This document shows positions 711 through 55,086 of a DNA stretch of 64,000 nt, piece by piece. Source of the DNA: a virus. A model generated the notes under the pieces. That model saw only the letters and a list, made by a program, of their open reading frames with translations. It was not told where the DNA came from and searched no databases. The DNA is taken from positions 1 to 64,000 of IMG/VR virus record IMGVR_UViG_3300021092_000031; one strand, 5' to 3'. Position 1 is the stretch's first letter. Each line of letters begins with the position of its first letter. Both the position numbers and the translations under genes were made by a program.

Positions 711-1193
711 ATGATATACAGGCTTTCAAAGAACGACTGGGTTGAAATAGGGAAGAAAACTGGCTGGCTGAAGACGGCTTATATTCATCATGGTTATGAT
801 GGGGGTAAATTGATGAGGGCGCTGGAAGGGGGAGATTTAAAATCTTTCGTTGATTCCATAGAAGAAGAGAACGCTCAAATGGCAGCAGATACCCTCCATT
901 TAGAGAGAGACATTTACGCTTATTCTTTAGATCAAGGTTTCACCAACGGTGACACGGACACGCATGTGCCATCTCAAAAAGAAACGATCCTGGTTGGATT
1001 CATAGAGAAGTTATCCAAGATTCTCGAGATGATGAAGGACAAGTTCCCGAATATCAAGACAAAAGACCCCACAGAGGCCATATGGGATATTCTCAGCCAT
1101 GAGGGGGAAAGAGGAGCTCATAGAGATGAGAATGCGACTGGAGATCCTCTCAGCGATGAGGCCGTCCGCGAGGCGGCCGAACGACATCAATGA
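711..1193 (+). CDS. Uncharacterised tagged protein, 160 aa
   Basis: The ATG at 711 follows a perfect AAAGGAGG at 695-702 with an 8-nt spacer, which decides the start against the out-of-frame ATG at 707. Residues 5-23 (LSKNDWVEIGKKTGWLKTA) are the clearest example of the long tag shared by several unrelated proteins in this window, with Trp at residue 10. The rest is acidic and helical, with no family I recognise; a Glu-rich segment ends in AAERHQ. It is the first gene after the repeat-rich non-coding region. The function is unknown; the tag suggests a common destination or processing with the other tagged proteins. Confidence 0.9.
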   Translation: MIYRLSKNDWVEIGKKTGWLKTAYIHHGYDGGKLMRALEGGDLKSFVDSIEEENAQMAADTLHLERDIYAYSLDQGFTNGDTDTHVPSQKETILVGFIEKLSKILEMMKDKFPNIKTKDPTEAIWDILSHEGERGAHRDENATGDPLSDEAVREAAERHQ

Positions 1194-1238
1194 ATAGAGG
1201 ACTTCATCAATCGCCCTCTTCAGACAGAAGAATAGCAC

Positions 1239-1358
1239 ATGCTCACACAGACTTTCCTAGCCATAGTGTTGCGCGTTGCTGAGAAGGCTTGTTGGCTCAA
1301 AAAGGCTGAAAGAAAATTAGTCGCACGGCTCTCTGCCTGCGCCCACAATGGCGTGTAG
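1239..1358 (+). CDS. Possible 39-aa peptide with tag-like CWLKKA
   Basis: A short ORF between two better genes encodes a 39-residue peptide. A hydrophobic start (MLTQTFLAIVLRVAEKA) is followed by CWLKKAERK, which resembles the W-L-K-[ST]-A end of the tag in the preceding gene. No strong ribosome binding site is seen, and its 3' end lies just before the ATG at 1360. It could be a genuine small gene or a decayed remnant of a tagged gene. Confidence 0.35.
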   Translation: MLTQTFLAIVLRVAEKACWLKKAERKLVARLSACAHNGV

Positions 1359-1359
1359 C

Positions 1360-1484
1360 ATGTGGTACAAGAGGGCAAAAGACACCCTGCACCTTTTAGA
1401 GTCCAAGCGGACTGTTGACCTTGTGGCTCTCAGAGGAAAAACCGGGGGACAAGAAACACTTCTGGTCCTCCGTTTCGGGGGGGG
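1360..1484 (+). repeat. ~125-bp direct repeat of the Nudix gene 5' end
   Basis: Positions 1360-1484 closely match 2300-2424, with about a dozen mismatches by eye. Most of these cluster in one short stretch after the first 38 bases and near the G-rich 3' end. Both copies begin at a start codon and keep the same reading frame, so the result is two proteins with nearly the same first ~42 residues. A local duplication or recombination through the G-run is likely. Confidence 0.9.
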
Positions 1485-2298
1485 CAGAGGGATGAACTGG
1501 TGGGGCGCTGCGAATGACAATCCTGAGCAGCAGCGTGCCAAGCACCCATACAGGTCACTGCTTGAGGCGTGGGACAGGTACAACGGTGACGGTGCAGAGA
1601 TTCAGACTCCAGAGGATCTTGCGGACACTGTCGAGTCTTTGCTTGAAGATGACCGTGCACCAGCAGAGTTGGACGAGGCAGTTCGCAAGTTCCGCGAGGA
1701 TCAGACCTACGACATCGAGGTCAAGGGCCGTGGCGAGATGGACACGGCTGGCGAGCAGCTTGAGATTGCGGTGCAGAAAGCAGCCGAGACCATCAGACAA
1801 GAGATGGGGGGCGCGACTCCCACTCCAGGGGGGAGCGGTGCGGAAATCGATGCTGGCAGGTTTACAGGGTACACGGACAGAGAGGTTGGGGAGATGTTGG
1901 ATCACGCATACATGGCTGGCGCACCCCAGGGGATCATCGACATGCTTGAGACGGAGTTGGACCTGCGCGAGAGGGAAGAAGACGACCCGTCCGGCGGAGA
2001 TGATGAGCCCAACAGGAGCAACATGGGTCTTGGTGTTGAAGAACTGATGCGGCAAGCAGCGTTGCGGGGGAGAAATGAGAACATGTCCCCCGCACAGCTG
2101 GGGGCGGAAATCCGCAGAGACGGCGACTTTGCCGTGATGACAGGTGCAATTCCGCTTGCGACAGTCAGTGATGCAGAACTTGGGCAGGAGGCCTACGACG
2201 CGTTGCAGGCGCACGAGGATCGCATCTCCGCAATCCGGAGGAGGATGTCAACAGATGCCGGGCGGCGGCCCTCTACCCGTGCTGGAGAGGACACCTGA
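1360..2298 (+). CDS. Uncharacterised protein with a copied Nudix-type N-terminus, 312 aa
   Basis: The start at ATG 1360 matches the start of the downstream Nudix gene (MWYKRAKDTLHLL). The first ~42 residues are a copy of that N-terminus, short tag WYKRA included, but no Nudix box follows. After about residue 44 the sequence changes to MNWWGAANDN and then to a polar, acidic, helical protein rich in Glu, Asp and Arg. ATG 1492 could be the original start, with a second Trp-rich N-terminus, and the upstream part may have been added by duplication. It ends 1 nt before the next ATG (TGA-C-ATG). The function is unknown; the composition would suit a scaffold-like or binding protein, but that is a guess. 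Confidence 0.8.
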   Translation: MWYKRAKDTLHLLESKRTVDLVALRGKTGGQETLLVLRFGGGRGMNWWGAANDNPEQQRAKHPYRSLLEAWDRYNGDGAEIQTPEDLADTVESLLEDDRAPAELDEAVRKFREDQTYDIEVKGRGEMDTAGEQLEIAVQKAAETIRQEMGGATPTPGGSGAEIDAGRFTGYTDREVGEMLDHAYMAGAPQGIIDMLETELDLREREEDDPSGGDDEPNRSNMGLGVEELMRQAALRGRNENMSPAQLGAEIRRDGDFAVMTGAIPLATVSDAELGQEAYDALQAHEDRISAIRRRMSTDAGRRPSTRAGEDT

Positions 2299-2299
2299 C

Positions 2300-3142
2300 A
2301 TGTGGTACAAGAGGGCAAAAGACACCCTGCACCTTTTGGGGGTCAATCCAACTGTTGACCTTGTGGCTCTCAGAGGAAAAACCGGGGGAGAAGAAATACT
2401 TCTGGTTCTCCGCTCCGGGGGGGCTGTGGAGGGCGGCAGGTGGGCCCTCCCAGGTGGCTTCATCAACACAGACGCACAGAGGGGTGAGAGGTGGAAAGAG
2501 GGTCGTGAATCTCCGAGAGAGGCAGCGGTCCGTGAAACGTTGGAAGAAACAGGTGTATCCGTTGACCCTGGAGACCTCATTGAGGTGGGGGTGTTTGAGG
2601 GTGGAGGCAGAGACCCACGCGACTCCCCAGATTCATGGACCAAATCCCATGCATTTGCCGTTCGCGTTGACGGAAGCCCCCGGGCAAGGGGCGGGGACGA
2701 CGCATCAGACGCAGAGTGGTTTCCGTTGGAGGAACTGCCCACCATGGCATTTGACCACAGGGAGATCGTTTCTGCGGCTCTCAGGAAGCTTGGGAGGCGT
2801 GAGAAGACCGCAGCACGAGTTGCAGGAGCAGCACGAGAGGCAGGGTCTGGTGACCATCTCACCCTTGGTGACCTTGTCACCCTGAAGGTGGGGATGAAGG
2901 ACGCCGACTTCTGGATCATCAGGCGCGGGAGCCCCGACAGGGTGGGAACCCCCGTGAGGGATTGGGGGTCAGAGTTGATCGGTGTGAAGGTGGAGAGAAC
3001 CGACCTGCTCCTGCCCGACTACCTCTTCCACATGATCATGCACATCGCGAACACTGGTTATTTCCGCCGCTTTTCAACGGGAACGGTTGGGATAAAGCAC
3101 ATAACCATATCCGATGTGGCCAACATTCCAATCGGAAGGTGA
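2300..3142 (+). CDS. Nudix hydrolase with C-terminal HsdS-like domain, 280 aa
   Basis: Nudix enzymes cleave nucleoside diphosphates linked to another group. The Nudix box is visible (ESPREAAVRETLEETGV, with the catalytic REx2EE core), preceded by ALPGGF and a short insertion. The start at ATG 2300 gives MWYKRAK, the short tag. Residues from about 205 onward form a second module. Its end (LPDYLF...GYFRRFSTGTVGIKHI...SDVANIPI) resembles target-recognition regions of type I restriction specificity subunits or TaqI-like proteins; I base this on motif memory only. The gene follows its partial duplicate directly. It may serve nucleotide-pool sanitation or decapping in the infected cell. The Nudix call is firm; the C-terminal assignment is tentative. 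Confidence 0.88.
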   Translation: MWYKRAKDTLHLLGVNPTVDLVALRGKTGGEEILLVLRSGGAVEGGRWALPGGFINTDAQRGERWKEGRESPREAAVRETLEETGVSVDPGDLIEVGVFEGGGRDPRDSPDSWTKSHAFAVRVDGSPRARGGDDASDAEWFPLEELPTMAFDHREIVSAALRKLGRREKTAARVAGAAREAGSGDHLTLGDLVTLKVGMKDADFWIIRRGSPDRVGTPVRDWGSELIGVKVERTDLLLPDYLFHMIMHIANTGYFRRFSTGTVGIKHITISDVANIPIGR

Positions 3143-3275: not shown

Positions 3276-3713
3276 ATGTTTTCATCTGAACTTATAAGCC
3301 TGGTTGGTGGTGGACTTGTGGGGTTCCTCTTCAGGTACATGGCGCAGAAGAGCGCCGACCAGAAGGAGATGTTCAACCAACTGATTCAGGCGAACATACA
3401 GACAAGAGAAAATCAAGACAAAGCAGCAGCGAGGGTTCCAATCGACACGGGCAGGGTGGTTCGTCAGATTATTGTGCTGACGATCCTCTTTGGGGCGTTC
3501 GCAGCCCCGTTCATCCTCCCATTCTTTGGGATTCCAACGTTCGTCGAAGTCGATGTGAAGAATCCAGAAGGCCTCTTTGGCCTCATCCCGGCAACGGTCA
3601 AGAAAGCATTCGTTGAGGTCAATGGGTTTTTCTGGACATCAGAAAACCGCGAAGTGCTCCTCAGCATTGTTGGCTTCTACTTCGGCACTGCCGCAGCAAC
3701 AACCAAAAAGTAA
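3276..3713 (+). CDS. Small membrane protein, 145 aa, holin-like in layout
   Basis: An N-terminal hydrophobic stretch (LISLVGGGLVGFLFRYMA) is followed by a charged Gln-rich linker. Then come a strong membrane segment (IIVLTILFGAFAAPFILPFF) and a C-terminal hydrophobic stretch (VLLSIVGFYFGTAAA). AGAGGATAAGAAGG upstream offers a ribosome binding site. It sits directly before a small lipoprotein gene, an arrangement seen for phage lysis genes (holin plus outer spanin). No lysozyme is nearby, so a lysis role is only a suggestion. Confidence 0.75.
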   Translation: MFSSELISLVGGGLVGFLFRYMAQKSADQKEMFNQLIQANIQTRENQDKAAARVPIDTGRVVRQIIVLTILFGAFAAPFILPFFGIPTFVEVDVKNPEGLFGLIPATVKKAFVEVNGFFWTSENREVLLSIVGFYFGTAAATTKK

Positions 3714-3727
3714 TGAGGCGCAGAGAA

Positions 3728-4243: not shown

Positions 4244-4972
4244 ATGAACTGGTTCAAGAGGGCTGAAGGTGAGGGGGAGGTTGGCTTCAGGCACCTGAAG
4301 CGCTGGAGAACCCCGAGCAATTATTTCGGTGCGGAATGGGATGGCTGGTATGCGGCCCCCGTCAGACGCCACCGAGATTCGGAAATCCTGGATAACTCGA
4401 ACTGGGAGGTGCAGCTGGAGAGGATACCCGAATCAGAGACAGTGCAGGCGGTGACTGAGAGCCACTTTGCGGTGGGATGGGTCGAGTGGCTTGCCATCCA
4501 CGAGTCAGACAGGGGGGCACTGGCAGAGGCGGAGAAGATAGGAGAGCAGTTAGAAAACTATCCCATACTGGACGAAGATCACTACAGCCAACTCGAGTGG
4601 AAGACGATGGAGGAGAGCGGCATGATCCACGACCCGAACAGTGGTGAGTGGGTGGACGAAGTCGAAGGGGAGTGGAAGGGCAGGTTGGAGGGGATCAGTA
4701 TACCTGGCATGGACGGGGTGACAGCATCAGGGGAATTTATCATCACATACATGCTGAACAGGGAAGAACTCAAAGTGACAAATGCGAAACCTATCTACAT
4801 GGAAGTGAAGAAACCACGTGGTCGGGTAGTGGTTGTCACCAATGGGAATGAGCTCAACCCTGGAGGAATTGTGAAGAGAGTGATGGAGTCACTGATGGAA
4901 ATGGGCTCAGAAGCGCATGCCGAAAAGGTCTTTGACCAGATGCGGGCCCAACTGGAGAGCAAATACTTCTGA
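4244..4972 (+). CDS. Tagged phage-type protein of the YPxLDEDHYS family, 242 aa
   Basis: The start at ATG 4244 gives MNWFKRAEG, the short tag. The middle contains VGWVEWLAIHESD, then LENYPILDEDHYS. This combination is familiar from a widespread uncharacterised phage protein family (HWAVGW... then a YPVLDEEDYS-like segment). The C-terminal part (GISIPGMDGVTASGEFIITYML and the following ~60 residues) looks like an added alpha/beta domain. The function is unknown. A 177-nt non-coding stretch precedes it. No strong ribosome binding site is seen, but the tag supports this start over the longer ORF beginning at 4181. Confidence 0.82.
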   Translation: MNWFKRAEGEGEVGFRHLKRWRTPSNYFGAEWDGWYAAPVRRHRDSEILDNSNWEVQLERIPESETVQAVTESHFAVGWVEWLAIHESDRGALAEAEKIGEQLENYPILDEDHYSQLEWKTMEESGMIHDPNSGEWVDEVEGEWKGRLEGISIPGMDGVTASGEFIITYMLNREELKVTNAKPIYMEVKKPRGRVVVVTNGNELNPGGIVKRVMESLMEMGSEAHAEKVFDQMRAQLESKYF

Positions 4973-6291: not shown

Positions 6292-6295
6292 GTGC

Positions 6296-7639
6296 TCATT
6301 CCTGATCTGGTTCCATGGGCTTCGTCCATCCGCTCGCTGGGCCAACGCCTGAAGAGTCAGGCCCCCATGTCCCCTGTTCATATTTTTGCGTTTTGGGCTG
6401 ACCACCTACAACCCGATCAAATATTCTCCACTGGTGATCAACCTCGTCTTTTCTTGAGAAGAATGTTGCATCTCCGACCATGGCCATGCTGAAAAGACGT
6501 TCATAGGTGGGGATCTGCTGGTGGGTCTCCAGTTGGATGCGCAAAATATCCCCATCAACCACGCAGTTTTCTGGCCATTCGACATCGGGAACCTTCCGCA
6601 TCTTGATGACCACCTCGGTGCTGGTGATGGGCATGCGCTTCCCGGATCTGAGGTGGAATGTCGTTCCTTTCCATCTCGGGTTGTTGATGGACATCTTCAT
6701 GGCTGCATATGTCTCTGTTTTGGACCCCGATTTGACCCCCGGCTCCTTGAGATATCCCTCAAACTGACCGACGACGAGATCTTCAGGGTTCACCTGGGCA
6801 ACCCTGGACAGGAGGTCTGACTTCTTGTCACGGATCGAGTCGCCTGCGCCATATGGCTCCATGCACAGGAAGGACAGAACCTGCATCAGGTGGTTCTGCA
6901 CCACGTCCCTGATGCATCCTGCGTGGTCGTAAAACTGACCCCTCTCCTTGATGCCGAAGTCTTCCACCATGGATATCTCCACAGATGTGATGTTCTTGCT
7001 GTTCCAGAAGCGGTCAAGCTCAGGGTCGTCAAACCTGATGTCAAGGATGCTGCGCACCCCATCCTTGCCGAGGAAGTGATCCATTCTGAAGACATCTGCC
7101 TCGTCGAATGCAGAATGAACAACCCTGTTGAGTTCCCGTGCAGATTCCCTGTCCTCGCCGAAAGGCTTCTCAATCACCAGTCTGGAGCCGCGATTGCATC
7201 CTGAATTCTTCAGACCAAGTATTGCAGGCTTGAATGCTTGGGGCGGGAGTGCCAGGTAGATGAGGGGATGCCTGCAGCCACGAAGCGATGCCTTCAGTTC
7301 ATTGAAGTCTTGTGGGCTTTCCACATCGCCACTGATGTAGTGCAGGCGCTCTGCTACTTCTTTAATTACATTTTCTTCTGCGTCCTCGACATTGGAACGC
7401 ATCATGTCGACCAGTTGACTGTTTGATAATTTTTCTCTTGCGAAGCCAATCACTGGCATGTCCAACTTGCCATCATGGGCCAAACCATGGAGTGCAGAGA
7501 ATATTTGTTTTTTGGCAAGATCCCCGGAAATTCCAAAAATGACAATGCCGTCAGACCTTGGATGCGATGGATAGTTGCTCAGCCACCCTGTTCTTCTGCC
7601 TATCTTGAGCCACTCTGATTTGGAAAATTTGCGATGAAT
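6296..7639 (-). CDS. zwf: Tagged glucose-6-phosphate dehydrogenase, 447 aa, probable AUU start
   Basis: The enzyme oxidises glucose-6-phosphate to 6-phosphogluconolactone with NADP reduction. Visible motifs are GISGDLAKK (nucleotide binding, ~36-44), EKPFG (~157-161) and RMDHFLGK (~185-192, with Phe for the usual Tyr). The first 21 residues are the long tag (FSKSEWLKIGRRTGWLS), which normal G6PD lacks. There is no in-frame ATG. An AUU at 7639 has AGGAGA seven bases upstream and places Trp exactly at residue 10, as in the tagged protein at 711. The other choice is TTG at 7657, without a ribosome binding site. It heads the operon with the dehydrogenase-like gene. A phage zwf could supply NADPH and pentoses for nucleotide synthesis, as known for cyanophages. 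Confidence 0.9.
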   Translation of the reverse strand: MHRKFSKSEWLKIGRRTGWLSNYPSHPRSDGIVIFGISGDLAKKQIFSALHGLAHDGKLDMPVIGFAREKLSNSQLVDMMRSNVEDAEENVIKEVAERLHYISGDVESPQDFNELKASLRGCRHPLIYLALPPQAFKPAILGLKNSGCNRGSRLVIEKPFGEDRESARELNRVVHSAFDEADVFRMDHFLGKDGVRSILDIRFDDPELDRFWNSKNITSVEISMVEDFGIKERGQFYDHAGCIRDVVQNHLMQVLSFLCMEPYGAGDSIRDKKSDLLSRVAQVNPEDLVVGQFEGYLKEPGVKSGSKTETYAAMKMSINNPRWKGTTFHLRSGKRMPITSTEVVIKMRKVPDVEWPENCVVDGDILRIQLETHQQIPTYERLFSMAMVGDATFFSRKDEVDHQWRIFDRVVGGQPKTQKYEQGTWGPDSSGVGPASGWTKPMEPDQE

Positions 7640-7758
7640 TTTACATCTCCTACACAATATATTTACACATACAAGACCATATCCTGCATATTTTTACAAG
7701 CAGTACGCCAAAATGCGACATAAACAGACTAGAGGATGTAGTGTGGATAGATGGAAAT

Positions 7759-8487
7759 ATGTTGCTAGTCGTGGACATAGAATCTTTGGAAAAAATCGGC
7801 AGGATGGCAGGGTGGATCAAGTCTGCCATGTACAACCACAAAACGGGAAACGAGAACATGAAAAAAGTTTCGGGCATGGGTAACATGATGGGGGTGACAG
7901 GACATTCTGGTGGAGAAGTTGGCGAATGGAAGTCATATACGGACAACGATAGAGAGCGCTTCGATGTCGCAAAACTGTCGAATGATGCCCTCGGCAAAAT
8001 AAAGGACACAATTGGATACAAGACTTCGGGTGAGCAACTAAAACTCGGAGGCTATGAGTATGGGACAGTCTATGTCATGCGTAGCGGTCAGCAGCAGCAT
8101 GTCTCAGAAAGCACCACTCACGGCTATAGGGCAGATTTGGACTACACAGAGAATGTCAGACCTGAACACTACAACAAGCGTGACGAAAAGCAGGACGCCT
8201 CTGTTATAATTGAAAATCTCCAAACAACAGGACATCGTGTCACCGTGAAGGCGTATGCCTCATTCAGTCCGCTCGAGTATCTTTCGCTGAGGGGTAGGTC
8301 GGGGGGGCCGGCATCGGTGGCAAGCATGGTCATAAAGCGCGGCTCTGTGGAGGTCGATATTCACGAACCAGAGCAAAGTTGGTCAGAAAAGAAGAAGCCG
8401 GGTTTCTTTGCTAGGCTCTTCGGCAAGGCAACCTCATATGGATGGGTGAAGACAGCATCGGGATGGACTATCAACAAAACAGGTTGA
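7759..8487 (+). CDS. Tagged protein with basic C-terminus, 242 aa
   Basis: ATG 7759 is preferred over GTG 7741 because it puts the tag (ESLEKIGRMAGWIKSA) in the same register as in other tagged proteins, with Leu in place of Trp at residue 10. The body has a polar beta-rich region (LGGYEYGTVYVMRSGQQQH) and a short basic aromatic stretch (KKKPGFFARLFGKA). The C-terminus carries a second tag-like YGWVKTASGW. No family is recognised. It is transcribed divergently from zwf across a ~120-bp intergenic region. The function is unknown; the double tag would allow it to bridge two copies of the same receptor, which is speculation. Confidence 0.8.
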   Translation: MLLVVDIESLEKIGRMAGWIKSAMYNHKTGNENMKKVSGMGNMMGVTGHSGGEVGEWKSYTDNDRERFDVAKLSNDALGKIKDTIGYKTSGEQLKLGGYEYGTVYVMRSGQQQHVSESTTHGYRADLDYTENVRPEHYNKRDEKQDASVIIENLQTTGHRVTVKAYASFSPLEYLSLRGRSGGPASVASMVIKRGSVEVDIHEPEQSWSEKKKPGFFARLFGKATSYGWVKTASGWTINKTG

Positions 8488-8818: not shown

Positions 8819-11800
8819 ATGAAGAATATATACAGATCAGAAGATGGTCTCATCAAGGTTGCTGAATCAGAAGCAATCAGAAGACATCAAACAGCCTACT
8901 ATGTCGCAGAAACCGACCATAACATGGAACGGGTAGCATCGAATGTATTTCGGAACAAAGAAGTTTTTGAGTATGTTATAGGGAACATGATCGCAAGGTT
9001 AGGAAATAATTCGGTGGACACCGTCATGGGTGTGCAGCTGACAGAACTAGAAATCAAGGTTCTGAAGAGGGTGATGAACAATCCGAACGACATACCTGGA
9101 GGGCATAGGCTGCTGTTCGCTTGGCTCGCTGGTTCGATCTTCAATGTGGCTTTGTACATTTCGCTCTCGTCACCATGGATGCTTGAAAGGGCCAACAAGG
9201 AAAAAATTGAATACGACAAATTAGCCAGCTGGGTCGTTGACGAACTTCCGTATGGCTCAGTTGGTAAAATAGTTTTAGAGATGTTAGAAAAACCGATTTC
9301 CACAAAACTGCTCCAGTCAATGCACCTGGTCGCACTTAGCAGTCTAAATTATGCTGGTCCAACTTGGGTCAATATGACAGACCGTCCAAATTCTAACTTT
9401 CCAGTTGCGTTGCAAAGATTGCTGCGACCTGCGGTTAATGGTCTTGGCGAGAACAGGCACGAGCAGGCCACCAAATTAATCTTGGATTGGTTCGATAAGA
9501 ACGCATATCCTCCGTCATGGCTCATGAAAGAATTTGACGAGATCATGAGCGGTAAAGTTGATGGAGAAAAGTTCAAAACTTTCAGGCAGATTATAATCGA
9601 TTGGCCTGGGTTATTTTATGAAAACAACTTCCCAGAGTGGTCCGCAAAATATCTTGAGATGTTGATGAGGGGGGATCCGCCCTACCATGTCATGGCTGAT
9701 AAGAAGCGGGAAATCCAGAGCCGAATCATGGACAGTTTCCTGCTCGCAAAACAGCCAGAGTTTATCAATCAGCTGCTTTCAGATGCCATGCTTTCTGGTG
9801 AGATCGACGAGAATTCTTACATCAACAAGCTGACAAATTATCTCATTTCAGAGAAGAATAAAGATGCCCCCCCAAGGATTAAGGATGAATGGCTTGAACC
9901 AGTCGTTGGCAAACTGCTGAGGGATGGCAGGTTCAGGGACGATGAGGGGAGGCAGGCTGCGGTCTGGTGGCTCCAAAGGATGGGCGGCGGAGAATTGGAG
10001 ACCCCACAGAAGACGGCGTCTGCCTCAACTCCCCTCCTGCGGAAGGACAGGTTCGATGGGTTGATACGCACCATGCTGTCTGCGGCAAGCAAGAGGATGA
10101 GCAGCCCATGGCAGCCGCCAGTCGGAGCGGAGAAGCTGAAAATGACAGAAAGATCACTGAGGAGTGTTTGGGAATACGCACTGACAAACGATGTGCCAGA
10201 TGTCTTACACAATCACATGATTGTCATTTGTGAGCAATATGGCGGATGGCCTGGCATGTATGTCAGTGCCATGCGTTTTCTTCCACAACTGATGGAGAAA
10301 TATGGCGAAGCAGGCACACTGTTGAGCATCATGAAGACAAAAACAGCAAATGATTTTGAAGAATTTATGTTCGGGTGGCATCATCAGCACAAGAAGAACA
10401 TGGCAGAGACCGAAGCCATCATGGAATACAAGAAGACATTCAAAATCGGAGAGAACATGCATTGGCGTGTTGAAATGCTTGCAACGGCTCCTGCAATCAG
10501 TGCACACAGCACCCACCAAGACCATACGGGCATCGATTCAGACGGCGTGGCCAAGCCTCTCTTGGTGTATGACATCTACAAAGGACGAGGATCCGATGTC
10601 CTACCGCTGAATAAGGTGGGAAGCCTGTTTTTTATAACACCCAAAAATCCAAAACACCAAGGTGAGGGATATACGGCAAGAATCAACTCCATGCATGACG
10701 AGCACATCGAAGAATATTTTGGATCCGAAGAACCAGAAGAAAATGATATGTACAGCATTGTGAAAACATCAGTAGTCAACGAGCATGGAGATGAACTTGA
10801 TAGGGATGCATGGAGGGCAGTCGTGCTTGGTCGACCGATGCCCAAGGGGTTCGTAAGGTTTGTAGAACAAAATGCGAATCCTGAAATGTCAGAATTTCTT
10901 CTTAGATATGTATCTGATACGGAATGGGAAGGCAATGAAAACGATGCGCTCGATGATTTGCAATCCGGTCAATCTTTCATGAATTTGATAATTAGACGCC
11001 TTGAGGCTCTCGTGCAGGGAGGGTCTGAAAGTAGACTGAAGCAATTTCTACTAAATATGGCGGCAGATCGAAATTTGCTTGAATCATTCAGTTCTACTGT
11101 GCACCTGTACGGGCTTGCCAGTTGGAGAGCGGAAGCCACCATGATGACGGAATCTGGAGGTTTTGACACTGGTTGGTCAAGGCGAAATGTTTTTGCCGAA
11201 AAACTCGGCAATGTGATCAAGAATATTGCCAAGGAGAACAGTGACAGCACACCTGAGTCGTTTGCGGATCTTGTCTTTGCTCTGATGCATTCACACCTGA
11301 TTGACAATTGGATCAGGATCAGTATTGCACAGCAAGCAAGTCCATGTCGATGGATAAAAAGGCTGTGGGCTCTTGCAATGCTCTCTGGAGACTTGGGAGA
11401 TGAGGGCATGTCAATATATACACATCACAAAGATGATGGCTCAAATTCTCCATTAAGTGATCTCAATCCACAGGTCATGAAAAAAATGCTTCCAGATTCA
11501 CAAGCTGCTGCTGACCTTATAGAAAGATCATACCTAAGTAGCAAAAAATTCCAATATTGGTCTCCTGCAATGGCTCAACTTAATGAGGCGAACGAAGACA
11601 GTGAATTACCCACCATAATAAAAGACATGATAGACATGTACCGTCAAGAGATCCTGGGAGACAAGAGGGTTATAGAATATGCAGAAAGGTACTGCAGAGT
11701 ACATGGGCATTTGAGCGATTATTCAAAAAAAATAATGATCGGAAATCTCGGGAACAAGGGCGGGATACTCCCGTGGCAGTTGGAACCCAAAAAAGGCGTG

Positions 11801-12175: not shown

Positions 12176-12224
12176 AAAGGGTTGGTGCATTATTTTTGTT
12201 AAATATTGTTTAATGGAGGACAGG

Positions 12225-13235
12225 ATGGCAGACATACAGGAAATAGCATCAGGACTGCAATTTAGGCCTGTCAGGAAGAAATCAAATATTAATTACAGGT
12301 ATATGCCTGATGCCGATTACGGCAGTATGCAGCCGCTCACCTACACTGTCCTTAGCAGGAGAGAGAGGATAGTGACAGACCTTGATAAGACCTCTAAGGA
12401 GGGGATGCCTGGGGATATACTCATATCTGGACCCAAGGGAGAAGTATATGTTGTTGACAGTAGTCAGTTCAGCAACAAATACGATGGGGAAATTGGCGGC
12501 GACATCAGACCTAAAGGGGACATAAGGTATGCGGCCCTGTATGGAGGCCCAGAAGAGATAAACTTCAAGGCATCATGGGGAGAAGATATGGTGCTCAAGC
12601 CAGGCGACCAGCTGATGCGTGACGGAGACAAGGGGTTCTACAGAATAGATGGCGCAGTATTCTCTGAGACATACGAAGAGGTAGAAGACGACATGGAAAA
12701 GGTCGCCAGCCTTGACAGATGGTTCAAGGAGAAGTGGGTTGACATATCGCGCAGGGACGAGGATGGGAAGCACCCGCCTTGTGGAAGAAGTGATGCCTCA
12801 AAGGGGGCGTACCCAAAATGTCGTCCATCTAAAAAAGTATCTCGCCAGACCCCATCAACATCGCGCGGCATGAGCGACGACGAAAAGAAAAGAGCCACAA
12901 GACAGAAGAGAACTGCAGAGAAGAAGAAGAGAGTTGGGAAGAAGCCGCACATGACATCACACCACAAGCTCAAGGGCGCCGATGCCGCAACCTGGTGGAA
13001 GAGGGCCAAGTCTGGCTACAACATGCCCATGGAAGACATGTGCAGAGACAGCGAGAACTTGGCAGCAAGTATGATATCAGGTGCAAAAGATCTCATGCGC
13101 TCTGCCGACTTTCATCATGAATTGAACAAATTGGAGATTCCTGACTTTCGCAACTGTGGGGACGCCGAATGTTGCGAAAAGAAGATATCAGAACTGCAAG
13201 ATGAGATAGAGATCATAATTGATATATATCGATGA
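12225..13235 (+). CDS. DUF5872-like protein with internal WWKRA tag, 336 aa
   Basis: ATG 12225 follows GGAGGA at 12215-12220. The N-terminal ~150 residues are beta-rich (LKPGDQLMRDGDKGFYRI). At about residues 165-205 a DUF5872-like domain is visible: WFKEKWVDISRRDEDG, CGRSDASKGAYPKCRPS and basic Lys/Arg runs, a family I know from phages and large viruses. Next comes ADAATWWKRAKSGYN, which is the short tag in an internal position, as if a second protein began there. The C-terminal ~60 residues are acidic with paired Cys. The basic domain suggests nucleic acid binding. It overlaps the next gene by 4 nt (ATGA). Confidence 0.8.
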   Translation: MADIQEIASGLQFRPVRKKSNINYRYMPDADYGSMQPLTYTVLSRRERIVTDLDKTSKEGMPGDILISGPKGEVYVVDSSQFSNKYDGEIGGDIRPKGDIRYAALYGGPEEINFKASWGEDMVLKPGDQLMRDGDKGFYRIDGAVFSETYEEVEDDMEKVASLDRWFKEKWVDISRRDEDGKHPPCGRSDASKGAYPKCRPSKKVSRQTPSTSRGMSDDEKKRATRQKRTAEKKKRVGKKPHMTSHHKLKGADAATWWKRAKSGYNMPMEDMCRDSENLAASMISGAKDLMRSADFHHELNKLEIPDFRNCGDAECCEKKISELQDEIEIIIDIYR

Positions 13236-13774: not shown

Positions 13775-13800
13775 CCCGCCACAGTCGTAAGATTGTTGGC

Positions 13801-14186
<386 letters not shown>

Positions 14187-14190
<4 letters not shown>

Positions 14191-35571: not shown

Positions 35572-36399
35572 ATGGCAAACTGCAGTGAAGATGAGCTCAA
35601 GAAAACCGATGTCGTGACCAAATTTATGGCTGCAAAAGCAGCAGAAGACCTGATTGCATCTGGAAAGTCCTTCTCCTTTCCCATAGCGCTGTACATCGTC
35701 AATGAAGAAGACGTGGTCAGGGGCTTGGCAGAACCAGAACTGTACTTTGACAGTGCTGATCCCAAAAAAATCCAAAATAGAAAAGTCATGGATTCTGTGA
35801 AGAGTGATTCTGGCAAATGTGTCTATAAAGTCTTCGGAACATACGAGGACAGATCACAATTTAAAGGACTACTCGGCAGGTCTCAGTCGTTTGGCAAAAG
35901 GAGAGAACAGAGAGCAATCGAGCCAATAGACATGGGCAGGCGGTGGAACGCTCCACCTGGATTAACGCTTTCCATGACTAAGAAAGATTGGATCCGCATC
36001 GGCGAAAATGCGGGGTGGATCAAGTCAGCACAACAGCAGCAACCGATGATACCCATAGGACAAATGGAGTCTCCGCAGGCCCAAGGGGTTGCCATGCAGG
36101 CCATGGAGACGAACGCAGAGCAAACCAAAAGAATTCAAGAGGCCCTAAGCGGAGGCAGCAAGAAGATGGCGGATCAACTGGCTGCTCTGCAACGACAACT
36201 GGCCTCCAAGCAGCAGGCATACAACGTCGGATGCAAGCAGGGAAATGAATCTCAAAGTCCTGATTGCGTGGAGATTCAGAATGCAATGAACGAAATTCAG
36301 GAGCAAATGTCAACCATCCAACAACAAGCTGACAAAAACAAGTCAGACTTAGAACAGTTGTCCAAAAACAACCTTATCGGAGGCTTCAGTTTAGCATGA
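35572..36399 (+). CDS. Fused protein with an internal long tag, 275 aa
   Basis: Residues 1-125 form a mixed alpha/beta domain with AALYIVNEEDV-like and VYKVFGTYED strands. At 135-153 an intact long tag occurs (MTKKDWIRIGENAGWIKSA), beginning with a Met coded at 35974, and a Gln/Ala-rich coiled-coil region follows (QLAALQRQLASKQQAYN). In other proteins the tag is N-terminal, so this looks like two genes fused with no stop between, or an internal translation start. AGAGGA precedes the ATG at 35572. The next gene overlaps by ATGA. Confidence 0.8.
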   Translation: MANCSEDELKKTDVVTKFMAAKAAEDLIASGKSFSFPIALYIVNEEDVVRGLAEPELYFDSADPKKIQNRKVMDSVKSDSGKCVYKVFGTYEDRSQFKGLLGRSQSFGKRREQRAIEPIDMGRRWNAPPGLTLSMTKKDWIRIGENAGWIKSAQQQQPMIPIGQMESPQAQGVAMQAMETNAEQTKRIQEALSGGSKKMADQLAALQRQLASKQQAYNVGCKQGNESQSPDCVEIQNAMNEIQEQMSTIQQQADKNKSDLEQLSKNNLIGGFSLA

Positions 36400-37871: not shown

Positions 37872-38314
37872 AGCATGTAAAGTTGTCGTATGCAGACTGG
37901 CTTAAGATCGGTCATGCGTTTGGCACGTCGAAAATTGCCCAAGATATTGGGGCTCCACTAGGCGGAGCCACTGGCGGTCCAGCTGGAGTCGCAGGCACCG
38001 TTTCAGGAATCGATGCGGCTCTTATTGACAAAGACACAAATAACGATGAAGATCATCTGAATAGACTCAATGTGCTGTTCAGGAGGGCGCTCCGAAGCAG
38101 AAAGAATTCAGATGATCCAGTTGAAAGCGCACTCATGGATGCATGTCAGGCAGACGGCTCTAGACTATTTCCATCGCAACTTGATGTAGATCTGACGCAG
38201 GATCCACCCGTGATACGTGGATGGTATGGTCTTGAGCTTGGGCCACAGACGCCAAAGCCTCCTACCCCCGCTGGCGAACCTCCAGGCGGAGCGGCTCCAC
38301 CTACAGGAATGTGA
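37868..38314 (+). CDS. Tagged protein with Pro/Gly-rich ends, 148 aa
   Basis: It begins with the long tag in a variant form (LSYADWLKIGHAFGTSKIA; Trp at residue 11, and TSKIA in place of WLKTA). A Gly-rich stretch follows (GAPLGGATGGPAGVAG), then an acidic helical middle and a Pro-rich tail (TPKPPTPAGEPPGGAAPP). ATGA coupling to the previous gene. It ends directly before the superoxide dismutase start codon. Confidence 0.8.
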   Translation: MKHVKLSYADWLKIGHAFGTSKIAQDIGAPLGGATGGPAGVAGTVSGIDAALIDKDTNNDEDHLNRLNVLFRRALRSRKNSDDPVESALMDACQADGSRLFPSQLDVDLTQDPPVIRGWYGLELGPQTPKPPTPAGEPPGGAAPPTGM

Positions 38315-38941: not shown

Positions 38942-39201
38942 TAAACAACTGGTATCAGAGACAGTTGGAGAAGATAGCAGACATTCATGGATCCATGTCG
39001 GCAAAGTCTCCAAAAAGCATAAAGAAACTGATAGAAAACTGTGTCGGGATCAGCATATCCGATGATGCCGCAATAAAGATTGCATCAGTTGTAGAGAATG
39101 CGAATGACGAGTCTGAGATATGTGCGGCTTTAAAAGAGACTGGGAAACTGCCGATTGCTGCTGCAAGATCTTTGGCGCATTCCATAATGCCAGTCCGATG
39201 A
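38938..39201 (+). CDS. Small tagged protein, 87 aa
   Basis: It starts MINNWYQRQLEKIADIHGS, a variant of the short tag (NWYQR...LEKIA). The remainder is helical, Ala/Ile-rich with two Cys. ATGA coupling to superoxide dismutase. It ends at the convergent minus-strand gene without overlap. The function is unknown. Confidence 0.75.
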   Translation: MINNWYQRQLEKIADIHGSMSAKSPKSIKKLIENCVGISISDDAAIKIASVVENANDESEICAALKETGKLPIAAARSLAHSIMPVR

Positions 39202-51693: not shown

Positions 51694-51833
51694 ATCACGG
51701 CAATTGGTATAAGCAGGCCAAGAAGAAGGAGTATGACCCAAATCCTTGGGCTGTTTGCACAGTATCTGTCGGCAGAGATGATAAAAAGAAATACGAACGT
51801 TGCGTTAAAGATGTGAAGAAGCAGAGCAAATAA
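51690..51833 (+). CDS. Small tagged NPWAVC-type protein, 47 aa
   Basis: It starts MNHGNWYKQAKKKEYDPN (short tag). It continues PNPWAVCTVSVGRDDKKKYE and RCVKDVKKQ. The NPWAVCxxxxG...KYERCVxxVK pattern is one I know from many small phage proteins; its function is unknown. ATGA overlap with the upstream gene and a terminator directly after support it as a gene. Confidence 0.8.
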   Translation: MNHGNWYKQAKKKEYDPNPWAVCTVSVGRDDKKKYERCVKDVKKQSK

Positions 51834-51890: not shown

Positions 51891-51903
51891 AACGGATAAT
51901 ATC

Positions 51904-52896: not shown

Positions 52897-52897
52897 G

Positions 52898-53386
52898 TTA
52901 AGTTCCCTGCCCTTGGTGGGCTCTAAGTTCCTGTGTCGGCTGCCACTTTCCACCTGTCTGCAGCGAAATGACCCACTTCATGTCAACAGGCTGACCTGAA
53001 TACTGATGTGGACCAGTCCAAACCTCATATGAATCCTCTCCGACCTGAGTCGGAGTGGTTACCTGTGCTGCATTTGGATTGTATTGCCACGCTGGTTGTG
53101 CAACAGCCTGTTGTCCTTGCGACTGCTGAACCATCCGCTGAGATGTACTAGGAGCTCCCCACTGAGATGTATCAGGAACTGTGCCCATGTTGCCAAGCGG
53201 AGCTGCGGCCACATTGTCCCTGGATGTTGCAGAAGGCCCCCATGCACGAATCGAGCCTGCACCCCGGGCTGCCATGTCCCTTGCTGATGGGGCCACTGGC
53301 TGGGCAGCGCTGCCAGAAAGACCAACATCACGAGCCCTCATACGTTGGGCTCCAGACACTTCAGATGACTGAGCAACCTTATCCAT
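52898..53386 (-). CDS. Low-complexity protein with short beta C-terminus, 162 aa
   Basis: The first ~105 residues are Ala/Ser/Gln/Gly-rich with little order. The end (DSYEVWTGPHQYSGQPVDMK followed by WVISLQ) looks like a short beta domain similar in flavour to the C-terminus of the downstream protein. The stop lies 1 nt before the next start. The function is unknown. Confidence 0.7.
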   Translation of the reverse strand: MDKVAQSSEVSGAQRMRARDVGLSGSAAQPVAPSARDMAARGAGSIRAWGPSATSRDNVAAAPLGNMGTVPDTSQWGAPSTSQRMVQQSQGQQAVAQPAWQYNPNAAQVTTPTQVGEDSYEVWTGPHQYSGQPVDMKWVISLQTGGKWQPTQELRAHQGQGT

Positions 53387-53397
53387 AGTGAATTGAA

Positions 53398-54033
53398 TTA
53401 GGCTGCTAGAGCTCCTGGTGGCTTAGGAGCGGCTGCTGTGGCAGACTGATTTGGTGTTCCGCCAGTAGGCTTGACAGGGGCTTGTGGGTTGAAGTCTTTC
53501 GGCAGTTCGCCTCCAGGTCCCTTGCCAAGAGCGCCATACATCTGGGTCTTCTTCTGAATGTCCTCCAGCTGCTTCTTGTGTGCAGCGGTGGTTTCTTCCT
53601 CAAGTTGCTGACCGCCGAAAGAGGCAGAACCTCCTGCAACACCAATCTGTCGTGCCATGTCGTTCATCTTGGCTGCCATTTCGACTTTTGCTGCCGTGAC
53701 TGCCTGAGCAACACGCGGGGACATCGTGGACAACTTGTCAAGGTGACTCATGAGCAACTTGTAGTTCGTCTGGATCTGTTGAAATTTTTGTGGATTGATA
53801 CCGTACCCGGAAAAAAGTTCTCCTAAACTACGATTGTCCGTGGCTTTGTTCCACAGCCATTTGCCACCTTCCCACACAGCAGGTAGAGCAGCACCTACAC
53901 CGAGGGCAGCAAGTGGTCCCAATGCTTCTTTACGAAGCATGACACCCTCGGGGCCTTTTGCGAGATACCCACGCTTGATGCCTGCTTCAATCCACTGACG
54001 GTCTGATATTTTTATCATTTTCTTGTCGTTCAT
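53398..54033 (-). CDS. Tagged protein with membrane-like segment, 211 aa
   Basis: The long tag is near the N-terminus (ISDRQWIEAGIKRGYLAKG). A hydrophobic Ala/Gly stretch follows (LGPLAALGVGAALPAVWEGG), then helical charged sequence (VTAAKVEMAAKMNDMARQIG) and a Pro/Ala-rich tail. It resembles the upstream gene in layout (tag, Ala/Gly region, helices, Pro-rich end), so the two may be distant paralogues. The function is unknown. Confidence 0.78.
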   Translation of the reverse strand: MNDKKMIKISDRQWIEAGIKRGYLAKGPEGVMLRKEALGPLAALGVGAALPAVWEGGKWLWNKATDNRSLGELFSGYGINPQKFQQIQTNYKLLMSHLDKLSTMSPRVAQAVTAAKVEMAAKMNDMARQIGVAGGSASFGGQQLEEETTAAHKKQLEDIQKKTQMYGALGKGPGGELPKDFNPQAPVKPTGGTPNQSATAAAPKPPGALAA

Positions 54034-54054
54034 TTTTGTTCTTTCTGTTTCTGA

Positions 54055-55086
54055 TCAGCGTGTTGGAACAGGGGCGACTGGCAGACCAACGGGAGACTGA
54101 ACCTGTGGACCTGTTGGGACAGGGGCGGCTGGCAGGCCAACGGGAGCCTGAACCTGTGGACCTGCCATAGACTTCGCGTATGCGGCCTGAGCAGCAGCCT
54201 GAGCTGCTTGGGCATCTGCCAACTCTTTTGCCCTCTGCTCTTCAGGGGTGGTCACGGTTGGAGTCATATTATTGTTCTGCATCTGCTGCATTGTCTGGAT
54301 AGTGTCAGTCACGGCTGACGCTACGGTGTCAAGCTGCTTGTCAATGCTGCTAGACATACCCTTCAGCGTTGGAGCCAACTGGTTGAATTGATATATTGAC
54401 CTCATGATTAACTTCTGCTTTGCCGGGTCGGTCATCAGTTCTGGGTTTGGAGCTGCATCGCCCTTGGATTTGTCCTTGAAGTAATCTATCAGGTACTTGC
54501 TGCCCAAGAAACCTCCGACGCCCGCAAGGGCTGGGAGAGCCATTCTTGCCGCGAAACCTCCTACGCCTTTTGCGACATTGCCAAACGTTGTTGCTGCGCC
54601 ACCAACAGGTGCTCCACCAAATCCTCTGCCAAAGGCACTTCCAAGTCCACCAAGGGTTCCAGCGGTGCTCTGTCCGGCGCTCGCGAGACCAGAACCGACA
54701 TTTTTGGCAAGGTTGGTGTACATGGCCCTGCCGCCCTGGGTGAGGAGGGGTGCGGCAGCAAGACCTGCAGCGGCAGTGGCAGCGGTACTACCCCAGCCTG
54801 GGCCTCCTGTGTCCTGACCGACCTGCTGAGCAGTCTTGATCAGCGAACTTCCTTCAAGGTTTTCTGCGATCTTTGCCATGATCTCTTCATTCTGCATGGC
54901 TTTCTTGATCGTTGTATAACTTGCCTTGCCAGGTTCGAGACCAGCAGACTTTGTAAGCTCTGCAGCGAATCTTGGAACTCGGGGATCAATTGAGAGCAGA
55001 CCACGCTTCAAACCAATATCAATCCACTCCGGGGTGGACATTGAAATCTTCTGTGTCCCATTACTTGCTGTTTTGATATGAGCCAT
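54055..55086 (-). CDS. Tagged protein with Gly/Ala-rich core, 343 aa
   Basis: ATG 55086 has AAAGGA seven bases upstream. The start MAHIKTASNG is followed by the long tag (MSTPEWIDIGLKRGLLS), and SLIKTAQQVG follows at ~85, so IKTA occurs twice. A large Gly/Ala region (GLGSAFGRGFGGAPVGGAAT; ALAGVGGFLGSKYLIDYF) may contact membranes. The C-terminus has two 17-residue repeats (GPQVQ-PVGLP-APVPT). It is likely a structural or membrane-active protein; no family is recognised. Confidence 0.78.
   Translation of the reverse strand: MAHIKTASNGTQKISMSTPEWIDIGLKRGLLSIDPRVPRFAAELTKSAGLEPGKASYTTIKKAMQNEEIMAKIAENLEGSSLIKTAQQVGQDTGGPGWGSTAATAAAGLAAAPLLTQGGRAMYTNLAKNVGSGLASAGQSTAGTLGGLGSAFGRGFGGAPVGGAATTFGNVAKGVGGFAARMALPALAGVGGFLGSKYLIDYFKDKSKGDAAPNPELMTDPAKQKLIMRSIYQFNQLAPTLKGMSSSIDKQLDTVASAVTDTIQTMQQMQNNNMTPTVTTPEEQRAKELADAQAAQAAAQAAYAKSMAGPQVQAPVGLPAAPVPTGPQVQSPVGLPVAPVPTR
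54061..54162 (-). repeat. Two 51-bp tandem repeats at a gene 3' end
   Basis: Units 54112-54162 and 54061-54111 (minus strand) code for GPQVQAPVGLPAAPVPT and GPQVQSPVGLPVAPVPT. They are in frame and at the very C-terminus, so copy number can vary without frameshift. Confidence 0.92.

What the first reader, a model, noticed from the sequence alone, without database searches (positions are those of the whole stretch)
711..55023. A Trp-containing tag shared by unrelated proteins: possible new sorting or packaging system
A long tag with consensus W-[LIV]-x-I-G-x3-G-[WYL]-[LI]-K-[ST]-A begins close to residue 10 in proteins at 711, 6296 (zwf), 7759, 37868, 53398 and 54055 and lies internally in 35572. 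A short tag W-[YFW]-K-[RQ]-A lies at the N-terminus of proteins at 1360, 2300 (Nudix), 4244 and 51690, internally at 12225, and in a variant form at 38938. The proteins share nothing else, and normal G6PD and Nudix enzymes lack it. Such a pattern is expected of a signal read by one partner, for example a virion-packaging peptide, a propeptide cut by a prohead protease after the Ala, or a docking peptide for a phage compartment. I know of no described system with this signature.
Basis: partly seen in the sequence, partly recalled or inferred. Interest (0 to 1): 0.88.

Follow-up and report, generated by a model that had tools for sequence, protein, structure and literature searches.

The report
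Phage capsid-packaging tag with protease cut site
Many unrelated proteins of a large, mostly uncultured group of phages related to Bacillus phage G start with a short peptide that looks like the cutting site of the phage's own head-maturation protease, so it probably marks proteins to be loaded into the phage head and trimmed there, as in phage T4 but with a different code.

Summary
The window is a piece of an IMG/VR phage; a colinear 130-kb sister contig (>=99.95% identical) supplies the core head genes. The shared core is Phi-x-K-x-A near the N-terminus; W-Y, I-I and the long W..IG...GW form look like interchangeable heads on it. The head-maturation protease is fused to a giant scaffold-like polyprotein in which K-x-A is the most over-represented residue pair in 44 of 74 frames examined; the same test on T4 scaffold gp22 returns the known gp21 site L-x-E. 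Inferred site: [LMF]-x-K-[VT]-A|[SQ]. The polyprotein itself begins M-x-x-x-[KR]-x-A in 30 of 41, the register of cargo M-N-W-Y-K-x-A. Published N-terminal sequencing of phage G's capsid protein (52% identical) implies a cut after Ala, before Gln. Best reading: an N-terminal capsid-targeting propeptide removed by the maturation protease, like T4's capsid targeting sequence, with a new code and a varied, swappable cargo list; phage G has its own flavour, MKRLIKK[AS]. Packaging and cleavage of tagged proteins are inferred, not shown. New variant of a known kind.

The parts
738..779 (+). long tag WVEIGKKTGWLKTA, residues 10-23 of gene 711-1193
1363..1377 (+). short tag WYKRA near the N-terminus of gene 1348-2298 (N-terminus shared with gene 2300)
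2303..2317 (+). short tag WYKRA, residues 2-6 of the Nudix gene 2300-3142; NUDIX match starts at residue 17
4250..4264 (+). short tag WFKRA (MNWFKRA) of gene 4244-4972
7574..7612 (-). degenerate long tag WLKIGRRTGWLSN before the G6PD domain of zwf 6296-7657 (no K-x-A)
7786..7827 (+). long tag LEKIGRMAGWIKSA of gene 7759-8487; a second GWVKTA lies at 8440-8457 near the C-terminus
8849..8863 (+). LIKVA, N-terminal K-x-A site of gene 8819-12175 (not in the finding)
12693..12710 (+). MEKVAS just before the DUF5872 region inside gene 12162-13235: putative inter-domain site
12993..13007 (+). WWKRA after the DUF5872 region: second putative inter-domain site
30123..30137 (+). MQKEA, N-terminal K-x-A site of gene 30093-32213 (not in the finding; kept in relative G027)
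35989..36030 (+). internal long tag WIRIGENAGWIKSA of gene 35572-36399
37898..37939 (+). long tag variant WLKIGHAFGTSKIA of gene 37868-38314; the relative in G011 has MNNWYKIS instead
38950..38979 (+). variant WYQRQLEKIA of gene 38938-39201
51705..51719 (+). short tag WYKQA of the 47-residue DPNPWAVC protein 51690-51833
53372..53386 (-). MDKVA, N-terminal K-x-A site of gene 52898-53386 (MDRIA in G027)
53923..53994 (-). long tag WIEAGIKRGYLAK followed by RKEA in gene 53398-54033
54991..55086 (-). MAHIKTA followed by WIDIGLKRGLLS in gene 54055-55176, whose likely start is the Met at 55086
55389..55403 (-). IKKTA, N-terminal K-x-A site of gene 55098-55433 (phrog_7595)

Best explanation
The tag is an N-terminal capsid-targeting propeptide that ends in a cleavage site of the phage's own head-maturation protease. 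In this phage group the protease (herpesvirus-assemblin / T4 gp21 fold) is the first domain of a very large protease-scaffold polyprotein. The polyprotein, the portal and other head proteins, and a varied set of cargo proteins carry sites of the form [LMFWI]-x-K-[VTKQ]-A|[SQ]. During head assembly the aromatic or aliphatic N-terminal residues (NWY, KII, KRLI, or the long W..IG...GW form) would bring the cargo into the core; the protease then cuts after the Ala of K-x-A in scaffold, head proteins and cargo, so the scaffold is dismantled and the cargo is freed inside the head to be ejected with the DNA. Shown by computation: the motif statistics, the shared register with the protease N-terminus, the predicted protease fold, swapping of tags on related cargo. 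Shown by others for one relative: phage G capsid protein shortened by 27 residues, which puts the cut after Ala, before Gln. Inferred: that tagged proteins are packaged, that tags are cut, where exactly, and that the polyprotein acts as scaffold.
For: (1) K-x-A is enriched in the polyprotein (46 vs 15.2 and 41 vs 16.1 in the two clearest of five) while the other proteins over 400 residues of those five contigs hold 229 against 216.8 expected in sum. (2) Of all residue pairs with spacing 1-4 it ranks first in 44 and in the top five in 57 of 74 frames. (3) Control: T4 gp22 gives LxE first (10 vs 3.3) and IxE fourth, the known gp21 specificity; phage G gp19-21 gives KxA first (16 vs 6.1). (4) Around 2,185 sites in 67 polyproteins the residue after A is Ser 3.15x or Gln 2.30x, K+1 is Val/Thr 2.2x, K-2 is Leu 2.5x; SPN3US gp245 cuts after A-X-E with Ser preferred at P1' (PMC10052503, passages). 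(5) The polyprotein starts M-x-x-x-[KR]-x-A, or one residue shorter, in 30 of 41, with a second [KR]xA site in 37 of 41 before the protease core. (6) Protease model: T4 gp21 Z 10.1, varicella-zoster protease Z 10.8; rows 1-37 all herpesvirus or T4 capsid proteases; residues 1-13 and 31-37 below pLDDT 50. (7) Phage G capsid protein 282 -> 255 residues, marked as N-terminal sequencing (PMC5646251 Table 1) = ...GRVALA|QAMAN. (8) Tags swap: the DPNPWAVC protein follows WYKQA, WYKSA, WYKEA, WHKLA or MKILKTA; the 37868 family has the long tag here and MNNWYKIS in G011. (9) Capsid-gene neighbourhoods: K of K-x-A at residue 5 in 27 proteins against a mean of 8.9 at 13 other positions. (10) Tagged bodies include NUDIX, kinase-like AAA_33, cREC_REC, LysM and polyA-polymerase/HD proteins (in the last three the tag is looser: WYRRA, WYKMS, WYRKVS).
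Against: No virion proteomics or N-terminal data on any tagged cargo. Trp at K-2 is under-represented in polyprotein sites (0.46x), so MNWYKKA is not a typical scaffold site. The phage G capsid site has Ala, not Lys, at P3. K-x-A is also above expectation in the folded protease core (124 vs 67), though 85 of the 124 lie at five positions. N-terminal K-x-A is not enriched in contig G047 (0.62), weakly in G054 (1.23), G043 (1.28) and phage G (1.30); high-scoring sites are not N-terminally enriched in G003, G019, G043, G054. R-x-A is N-terminally enriched too in six contigs (1.45-2.37) though depleted in others. 17 of 74 frames do not have K-x-A in the top five. The single-protein control is modest: LxE in T4 gp22 has z 3.7, while the best pair of a T4 control set has 3.6 and unrelated pairs in MoMoMixon proteins reach 4.2-4.9; the weight lies on the same pair recurring in many polyproteins. 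MoMoMixon, a distant relative, shows no K-x-A. zwf, the most striking cargo, lacks K-x-A.
Confidence: 0.72

Rival explanations
1. Docking without cutting: the motif is a short linear peptide that binds the scaffold or the inner face of the capsid (as encapsulin cargo peptides do, recalled); repeats in the polyprotein are repeated binding sites, and cargo is packaged but not processed.
For: Trp-Tyr and the long W..IG...GW form are richer than a bare cleavage site; Trp at K-2 is avoided in polyprotein sites; zwf keeps the head of the long tag without K-x-A.
Against: The motif is strongest in the protein that holds the protease; the residue preference after Ala (Ser, Gln) looks like P1' of a protease; the phage G capsid protein is cut Ala|Gln; sites at domain junctions suit cleavage.
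Confidence: 0.15
2. Sorting inside the infected cell, for example import into a phage nucleus or another compartment, unrelated to the virion.
For: Cargo includes metabolic enzymes (Nudix, G6PD).
Against: Head proteins carry the same sites (portal, polyprotein); the code tracks the protease. I did not search for a nucleus-type system.
Confidence: 0.05
3. Descent and recombination: tagged genes are copies of a few gene starts, spread by duplication, and the shared N-terminus has no function.
For: 1348 and 2300 share their N-terminus; contig G020 has 12 genes starting MNWY[KR]xIK[LIV]A within 7.3 kb.
Against: Related cargo bodies carry different tags; codons vary among tags; the motif recurs in the polyprotein and in another flavour in phage G.
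Confidence: 0.05
4. Chance or composition: K-x-A is common in K- and A-rich proteins, and gene starts are simply K-rich.
For: Enrichment at N-termini is moderate (6.62 vs 4.44 per 1000 residues) and absent in G047.
Against: Shuffles and composition-based expectations; eight other XxA pairs are not enriched at N-termini in the pooled set; T4, MoMoMixon and Tunturi_5 give 0.75, 1.21 and 0.94.
Confidence: 0.03

Closest known systems
T4 capsid targeting sequence (IPI-III, Alt) and prohead protease gp21
   Same: N-terminal propeptides (7-65 residues; the first 10 residues of IPIII suffice) on packaged, ejected proteins; targeting and processing residues separate (PMC9026906, passages); scaffold rich in the protease's own site; gp21-type fold.
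   Different: Code is Phi-x-K-x-A|[SQ], not [LI]-x-E; protease fused to a giant scaffold-like polyprotein; more varied candidate cargo; several tag flavours.
phiKZ / SPN3US head-protein propeptides (gp175, gp245)
   Same: Jumbo phages in which several head proteins lose N-terminal propeptides; several sites in some propeptides; Ser favoured at P1' (PMC10052503, passages).
   Different: Motif there is A-X-E (SPN3US); no short aromatic tag shared by unrelated cargo in the passages read.
Phage P1 Dar proteins (DarB capsid targeting sequence, DarA processing)
   Same: N-terminal signal directs a 250-kDa anti-restriction protein, and a reporter, to the capsid (PMC9024508, passages).
   Different: One cargo signal in the passages read; no repeated short code.
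Bacillus phage G head genes
   Same: Capsid protein 51-52% identical; gp19 aligns with these proteases (34% identity to the first row) and has 7 Phi-x-K-x-A against 0.8; its own N-terminal flavour MKRLIKK[AS].
   Different: gp19 is a separate 300-residue protein, not fused to a giant scaffold.
Encapsulin cargo-loading peptides (recalled)
   Same: Short peptide loads unrelated enzymes into an HK97-fold shell.
   Different: C-terminal and not cleaved as far as I recall; here N-terminal and tied to a protease.

Membership tests
T4-type capsid targeting sequence | short peptide at the N-terminus of otherwise unrelated proteins | tested here: met
T4-type capsid targeting sequence | cleavage motif [LI]-x-E shared with the scaffold | tested here: not met
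   K-x-A, not L/I-x-E, is the recurring over-represented pair; T4 gp22 gives LxE in the same test
T4-type capsid targeting sequence | tagged proteins are in the mature head and lack the propeptide | not testable with these tools
   needs virion proteomics
T4-type capsid targeting sequence | peptide suffices to bring a reporter into the head | not testable with these tools
   needs a fusion experiment
capsid maturation protease of the gp21 / herpes assemblin fold | fold | tested here: met
   AlphaFold2 model mean pLDDT 85.6; T4 gp21 Z 10.1 over 130 residues, rows 1-37 all capsid proteases; Foldseek best E only 3.6e-3
capsid maturation protease of the gp21 / herpes assemblin fold | conserved catalytic His and Ser | tested here: inconclusive
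   H98 invariant and S149 (GTSMG) nearly invariant in 41 sequences, but not superposed on a known active site
capsid maturation protease of the gp21 / herpes assemblin fold | sequence-profile match to a head maturation protease family | tested here: met
   phrog_18299 E 3e-14, residues 56-185; Pfam gave no match for the first 333 residues
SPN3US/phiKZ propeptide system | cleavage after A-X-E | tested here: not met
   K-x-A recurs instead; motif from PMC10052503, passages
encapsulin cargo-loading peptide | C-terminal location (recalled) | tested here: not met
   tags are N-terminal or at internal junctions

The most novel reading that the evidence does not exclude
A general, modular protein-delivery code: in this phage group a short, interchangeable N-terminal code (MNWYKxA, MKIIKTA, W..IG...GWLKTA, and MKRLIKKA in phage G) copies the N-terminus of the protease-scaffold polyprotein and loads dozens of unrelated enzymes, among them Nudix, kinase-like, ADP-ribosyltransferase-like and perhaps metabolic enzymes, into giant phage heads for injection, with fused cargo strings cut apart at the same sites.
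Probability: 0.5. Interest if true: 0.9.

Novelty: new variant of a known kind. Interest (0 to 1): 0.78.

Why it matters
If right, the first residues of a protein would tell which of the many unknown jumbo-phage proteins are injected into the host, an otherwise costly question, and would do so for uncultured phages. It gives a head-protease specificity readable from sequence alone, a directly testable list in the cultured phage G (MKRLIKK[AS] proteins), and a short, swappable tag for loading proteins into very large phage heads.

Tried and rejected
Strict DNA pattern for the long tag: no match in IMG/VR or GTDB contigs; the long tag is too variable for one pattern. Megablast of the first 25 kb of the window against phage records: none. 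Many tagged proteins had no PHROG or Pfam match. A search of the protease profile against PDB sequences gave no relevant match. Ortholog conservation (42 of 85 N-terminal K-x-A kept against 28.7 expected from identity; other XxA 60 of 264) is weak support: 7 of the 42 come from gene 44220-46760, which I read as ribonucleotide-reductase-like (no search) and not tagged, and one gene (63714 / L041:6154) was counted twice. The head-versus-tail contrast in the sister contig (8 of 15 against 4 of 19) rests on block labels inferred from gene order (only one of ten proteins searched had a tail match) and on the first-ATG rule, which misses non-ATG starts. The phage G regex (22 of 525 against 2.9) was written after seeing examples, on 400 of 497.5 kb. 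ADP-ribosyltransferase-like labels rest on an H-G-T signature that I recall and on a sub-threshold PARP match (E 2.5e-4). R-x-A as a lineage variant (polyproteins L144, L145, L148) did not track N-terminal R-x-A cleanly. Encapsulin similarity of the long tag is a recalled lead only.

Rows dropped: one search took the longest qualifying frame of each of 80 loci (6 had none); several loci are near-duplicates, and some frames do not start with a protease (L102, L128, L134, L135, L154). Alignment A3 used 41 of the 52 starts. and the pooled part of 92 left out contig G020; one search left out 8 loci that overlap contigs found by the tag.

Prior description: nine full-text searches listed none that I recognised as describing it, from titles, abstracts' beginnings and the passages read. 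The literal motifs gave two unrelated papers. Subscription papers, including the phage G structure paper that I recall as containing virion mass spectrometry, are not held, so a description there cannot be excluded.
Full report
WHAT THE WINDOW IS. The window is the first 64,000 bases of an IMG/VR virus record of 70,638 bases. A second record, IMGVR_UViG_3300020190_000012 (130,267 bases, here G001), is colinear with it at 99.95-99.99% identity over the whole window and runs on into the core head genes, which the window lacks: terminase (L041:4278-6164), portal (L040:14441-16654), a 1,886-residue protein with a head-maturation-protease domain (L040:8402-14062, phrog_18299, E 3e-14) and the major capsid protein (L040:6834-7739, phrog_2522, E 2.8e-66). 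The mechanism below therefore rests on a sister copy of the same virus, not on window sequence alone.

THE OBSERVATION. 1348 and 2300 share their N-terminus and count once. A scan of IMG/VR with M-N-W-[YF]-K-[KRQHNS]-A (one Asn codon only) gave 28 stretches, several in the same contigs; across those 25 records the pattern with both Asn codons occurs 41 times forward and 0 times backward. Because those contigs were found by the tag, I also took 50 records chosen only by their capsid protein: 16 hold M-x-W-[YF]-K-x-A, 27 matches against 1 for the backward pattern. Eight of the 25 tag-found records are among the 80 loci found by the capsid protein alone. Within contigs, the core W[hyd][KR]x[AS] lies in the first 60 residues of 6, 8, 12, 4, 11, 1, 6 and 6 genes (G001, G003, G018, G019, G011, G024, G020, G010) against shuffle means of 0.13-0.80 (all eight had come up in the tag scan).

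THE REAL CORE IS K-x-A. Reading N-termini shows the Trp form to be one flavour among several: MNWYKKA, MKIIKTA, MKIYRIA, MAHIKTA...LQKTA...LSKVA...GLIKSA. Pooled over 12 contigs (G020 left out), K-x-A occurs at 6.62 per 1000 residues within residues 3-60 against 4.44 beyond residue 100, while R-, E-, D-, Q-, S-, T-, N- and H-x-A are each lower at N-termini; sites that also fit the polyprotein flanks (over 2 bits) are 76 in 74,449 against 122 in 236,692 residues, rank test p 0.002. In the capsid-gene neighbourhoods (743 unique N-termini, polyproteins left out), K of K-x-A lies at residue 5 in 27 proteins against a mean of 8.9 at the 13 other positions examined; 5 of the 27 are capsid proteins, one is a portal and 2 look like protease fragments; raw totals over positions 3-16 are K 143, R 38, T 37, S 29, D 25, E 23, N 20, Q 15. 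In six contigs not chosen by the tag pattern the peak is weaker (10 at residue 5, 8 at residue 4; mean 4.1 over positions other than 5). Controls: enrichment of N-terminal K-x-A over the rest is 0.75 in T4, 0.94 in Tunturi_5, 1.21 in MoMoMixon, 1.30 in phage G; in the 13 family contigs it is 0.62-2.89, with G047 (0.62), G054 (1.23) and G043 (1.28) low. R-x-A is also enriched in six of them (1.45-2.37) and depleted in others.

THE PROTEASE CARRIES THE CODE. In the five contigs where the polyprotein was whole, Phi-x-K-x-A is far above shuffles: 22 vs 4.0 (G001), 19 vs 3.8 (G010), 19 vs 5.2 (G003), 15 vs 4.0 (G024), 12 vs 4.8 (G019); among the other largest proteins listed the highest is a 971-residue protein of G003 (6 vs 1.6). 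A scan of residue pairs puts K-x-A first in G001 and G010, third in G024, eighth in G003 and outside the top ten in G019, while the other proteins over 400 residues are near expectation (64/67.1, 40/32.3, 47/45.7, 42/39.6, 36/32.1). Eighty IMG/VR loci were fetched with a capsid-protein alignment (157 relatives in all). In 74 of them a long frame on the capsid strand was taken as the polyprotein; K-x-A ranks first in 44 and within the top five in 57 (near-duplicates included, frames not checked one by one). The method was tried on a known case: T4 scaffold gp22 gives LxE first and IxE fourth, the known gp21 specificity, with modest scores (z 3.7; the best pair of a T4 control set has 3.6). Phage G gp19-21 gives KxA first, Tunturi_5 gp331+332 second, and the distant Bxz1-type MoMoMixon gp98 does not show it. 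Over 67 polyproteins (2,185 sites, not independent) the surroundings are K-2 Leu 2.5x, Met 1.8x, Phe 1.7x; K+1 Val and Thr 2.2x; after Ala Ser 3.15x, Gln 2.30x, Val and Ile depleted: [LMF]-x-K-[VT]-A|[SQ].

SAME START AS THE CARGO. In an alignment of 41 proteases (of 52 starts) the N-terminal column reads K in 38 and R in 2, and 30 of 41 have M-x-x-x-[KR]-x-A or the same one residue shorter (MAFKKRA, MAMYKRA, MSFNKKA, MGFTKRA, MLYKHA), the register of MNWYKxA; a second [KR]-x-A closes the N-terminal segment in 37 of 41. In the window virus itself the start is MIPSKFS, with LQKQA as second site. The model of residues 1-290 is good from about residue 41 (mean pLDDT 85.6) and poor over 1-13 and 31-37. 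VIA-align ranks only herpesvirus and T4 capsid proteases in rows 1-37 (varicella-zoster Z 10.8, 2.3 A over 112; T4 gp21 Z 10.1, 2.8 A over 130); Foldseek alone is weak (best E 3.6e-3). The portal start LTKAAQ of G001 is matched by FSKTAQ, ITKNAQ and LRKMAQ in 3 of 7 aligned relatives, not in the other 4.

EXPERIMENTAL ANCHOR. Phage G's capsid protein is 51-52% identical to this virus's. Hua et al. 2017 (PMC5646251; passages with Table 1) list it as 282 residues, 255 when mature, marked as N-terminal sequencing data. Counting gives ...EEGRVALA|QAMANPIRV, mass 28.17 kDa against the listed 28.2: Ala at P1, Gln at P1', as inferred here, but Ala rather than Lys at P3. In phage G 22 of 525 called proteins (400 of 497.5 kb) fit M..[KR]L..K.[AS], 9 of them with [KR]RL[IMFT]KK[AS], against 2.9 on average in 500 sets of shuffled N-termini, highest 9 (pattern written after seeing examples). 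Three of the 22 continue with an H-G-T or H-H-T signature that I recall from ADP-ribosyltransferases; gp53, which starts MKRLVKAE and does not fit that pattern, has a sub-threshold PARP match. T4's packaged and injected Alt is such an enzyme (PMC9026906 and PMC5512222, passages).

TAGS ARE MODULES. A small DPNPWAVC protein carries WYKQA here, WHKLA in G027 and MKILKTA in L112; in G011 it is fused through WYKEA behind a kinase-like AAA_33 domain, and in L013 it follows WYKSA in one frame with a similar upstream stretch, though an own Met start (MNWYKSA) is possible there. The 37868 protein has the long tag here and MNNWYKIS in G011 over a shared body (38% over 95 columns). In gene 12162 the DUF5872 region lies between MEKVAS and WWKRA. 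Internal tags therefore look like junctions of fused cargo, where a maturation protease would separate the parts. Tagged bodies match NUDIX (from residue 17), G6PD (from residue 39 of the TTG frame), AAA_33, cREC_REC, LysM and polyA-polymerase/HD families, the last three behind looser tags; many others match nothing. Solved G6PD structures align from residues 24-38 of the zwf frame in 41 of 42 sequences, so most of its tag region lies ahead of the enzyme; the true start codon is not known.

MECHANISM. T4 offers the model: propeptides of 7-65 residues, a 10-residue capsid targeting sequence in IPIII with targeting mainly at residues 4 and 7 and processing at 8 and 10, cut by gp21 after L/I-x-E (PMC9026906, passages). 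By analogy the W-Y, I-I or long-form residues would target and K-x-A would be processed. Cleavage, packaging and ejection of the cargo are inferred. The main rival is docking without cleavage.

WHAT COUNTS AGAINST. No virion data on cargo; Trp at K-2 is avoided in polyprotein sites; K-x-A is also over-represented in the protease core (124 vs 67), 85 of the 124 at five positions; some contigs show no N-terminal excess; R-x-A behaves unevenly; zwf lacks K-x-A.

STATUS. The kind of system (capsid targeting plus maturation protease) is known; the code, the fused giant polyprotein, the interchangeable tag flavours and the breadth of candidate cargo were not found in print in nine full-text searches, with the limit that subscription papers are mostly not held.

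Noticed in passing
L090, L093, L113, L115, L119, L143, L151, L155 (8 of the 21 rows shown of protease alignment A3): The protease frame is interrupted at or just after the conserved GTSMG (putative catalytic Ser) motif by sequence that looks like an intein (for example CFPPDAPVLMSNGTE; label recalled).
   Followed up: no
L071:9505-16808 (contig G020): Twelve genes start MNWY[KR]xIK[LIV]A, eleven of them followed by [LV]P[VI]: a tandem paralogue family with a variant tag, mixed with MNWYKQA and MSWYKVA genes.
   Followed up: no
window 1348-3142: Two neighbouring genes share about 30 N-terminal residues (tag plus the start of the Nudix domain); the first continues into an unrelated protein.
   Followed up: partly
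window 13744-14190: Thioredoxin-like gene (label from reading) whose C-terminus is a run of about 14 Asn codons.
   Followed up: no
window 3713-4066: Short gene with a repeated ICFAA stretch ahead of a lipobox-like Cys, next to a possible membrane protein (3276-3713).
   Followed up: no
window 5224-6405 and 6296-7657 (minus strand): A D-isomer (phosphoglycerate-type) dehydrogenase-like frame overlaps the end of zwf; both look like auxiliary metabolic genes (first label from reading the sequence, no search).
   Followed up: no
L198-L217 (Bacillus phage G): Nine proteins begin with [KR]RL[IMFT]KK[AS] and more with looser variants; not noted in the passages of the two phage G papers read.
   Followed up: partly
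L139-L153 (clade of contigs G003 and G019): Several polyproteins of this clade are over-represented in R-x-A as well as K-x-A (for example 21 vs 7.1 in L145), suggesting a relaxed P3.
   Followed up: partly
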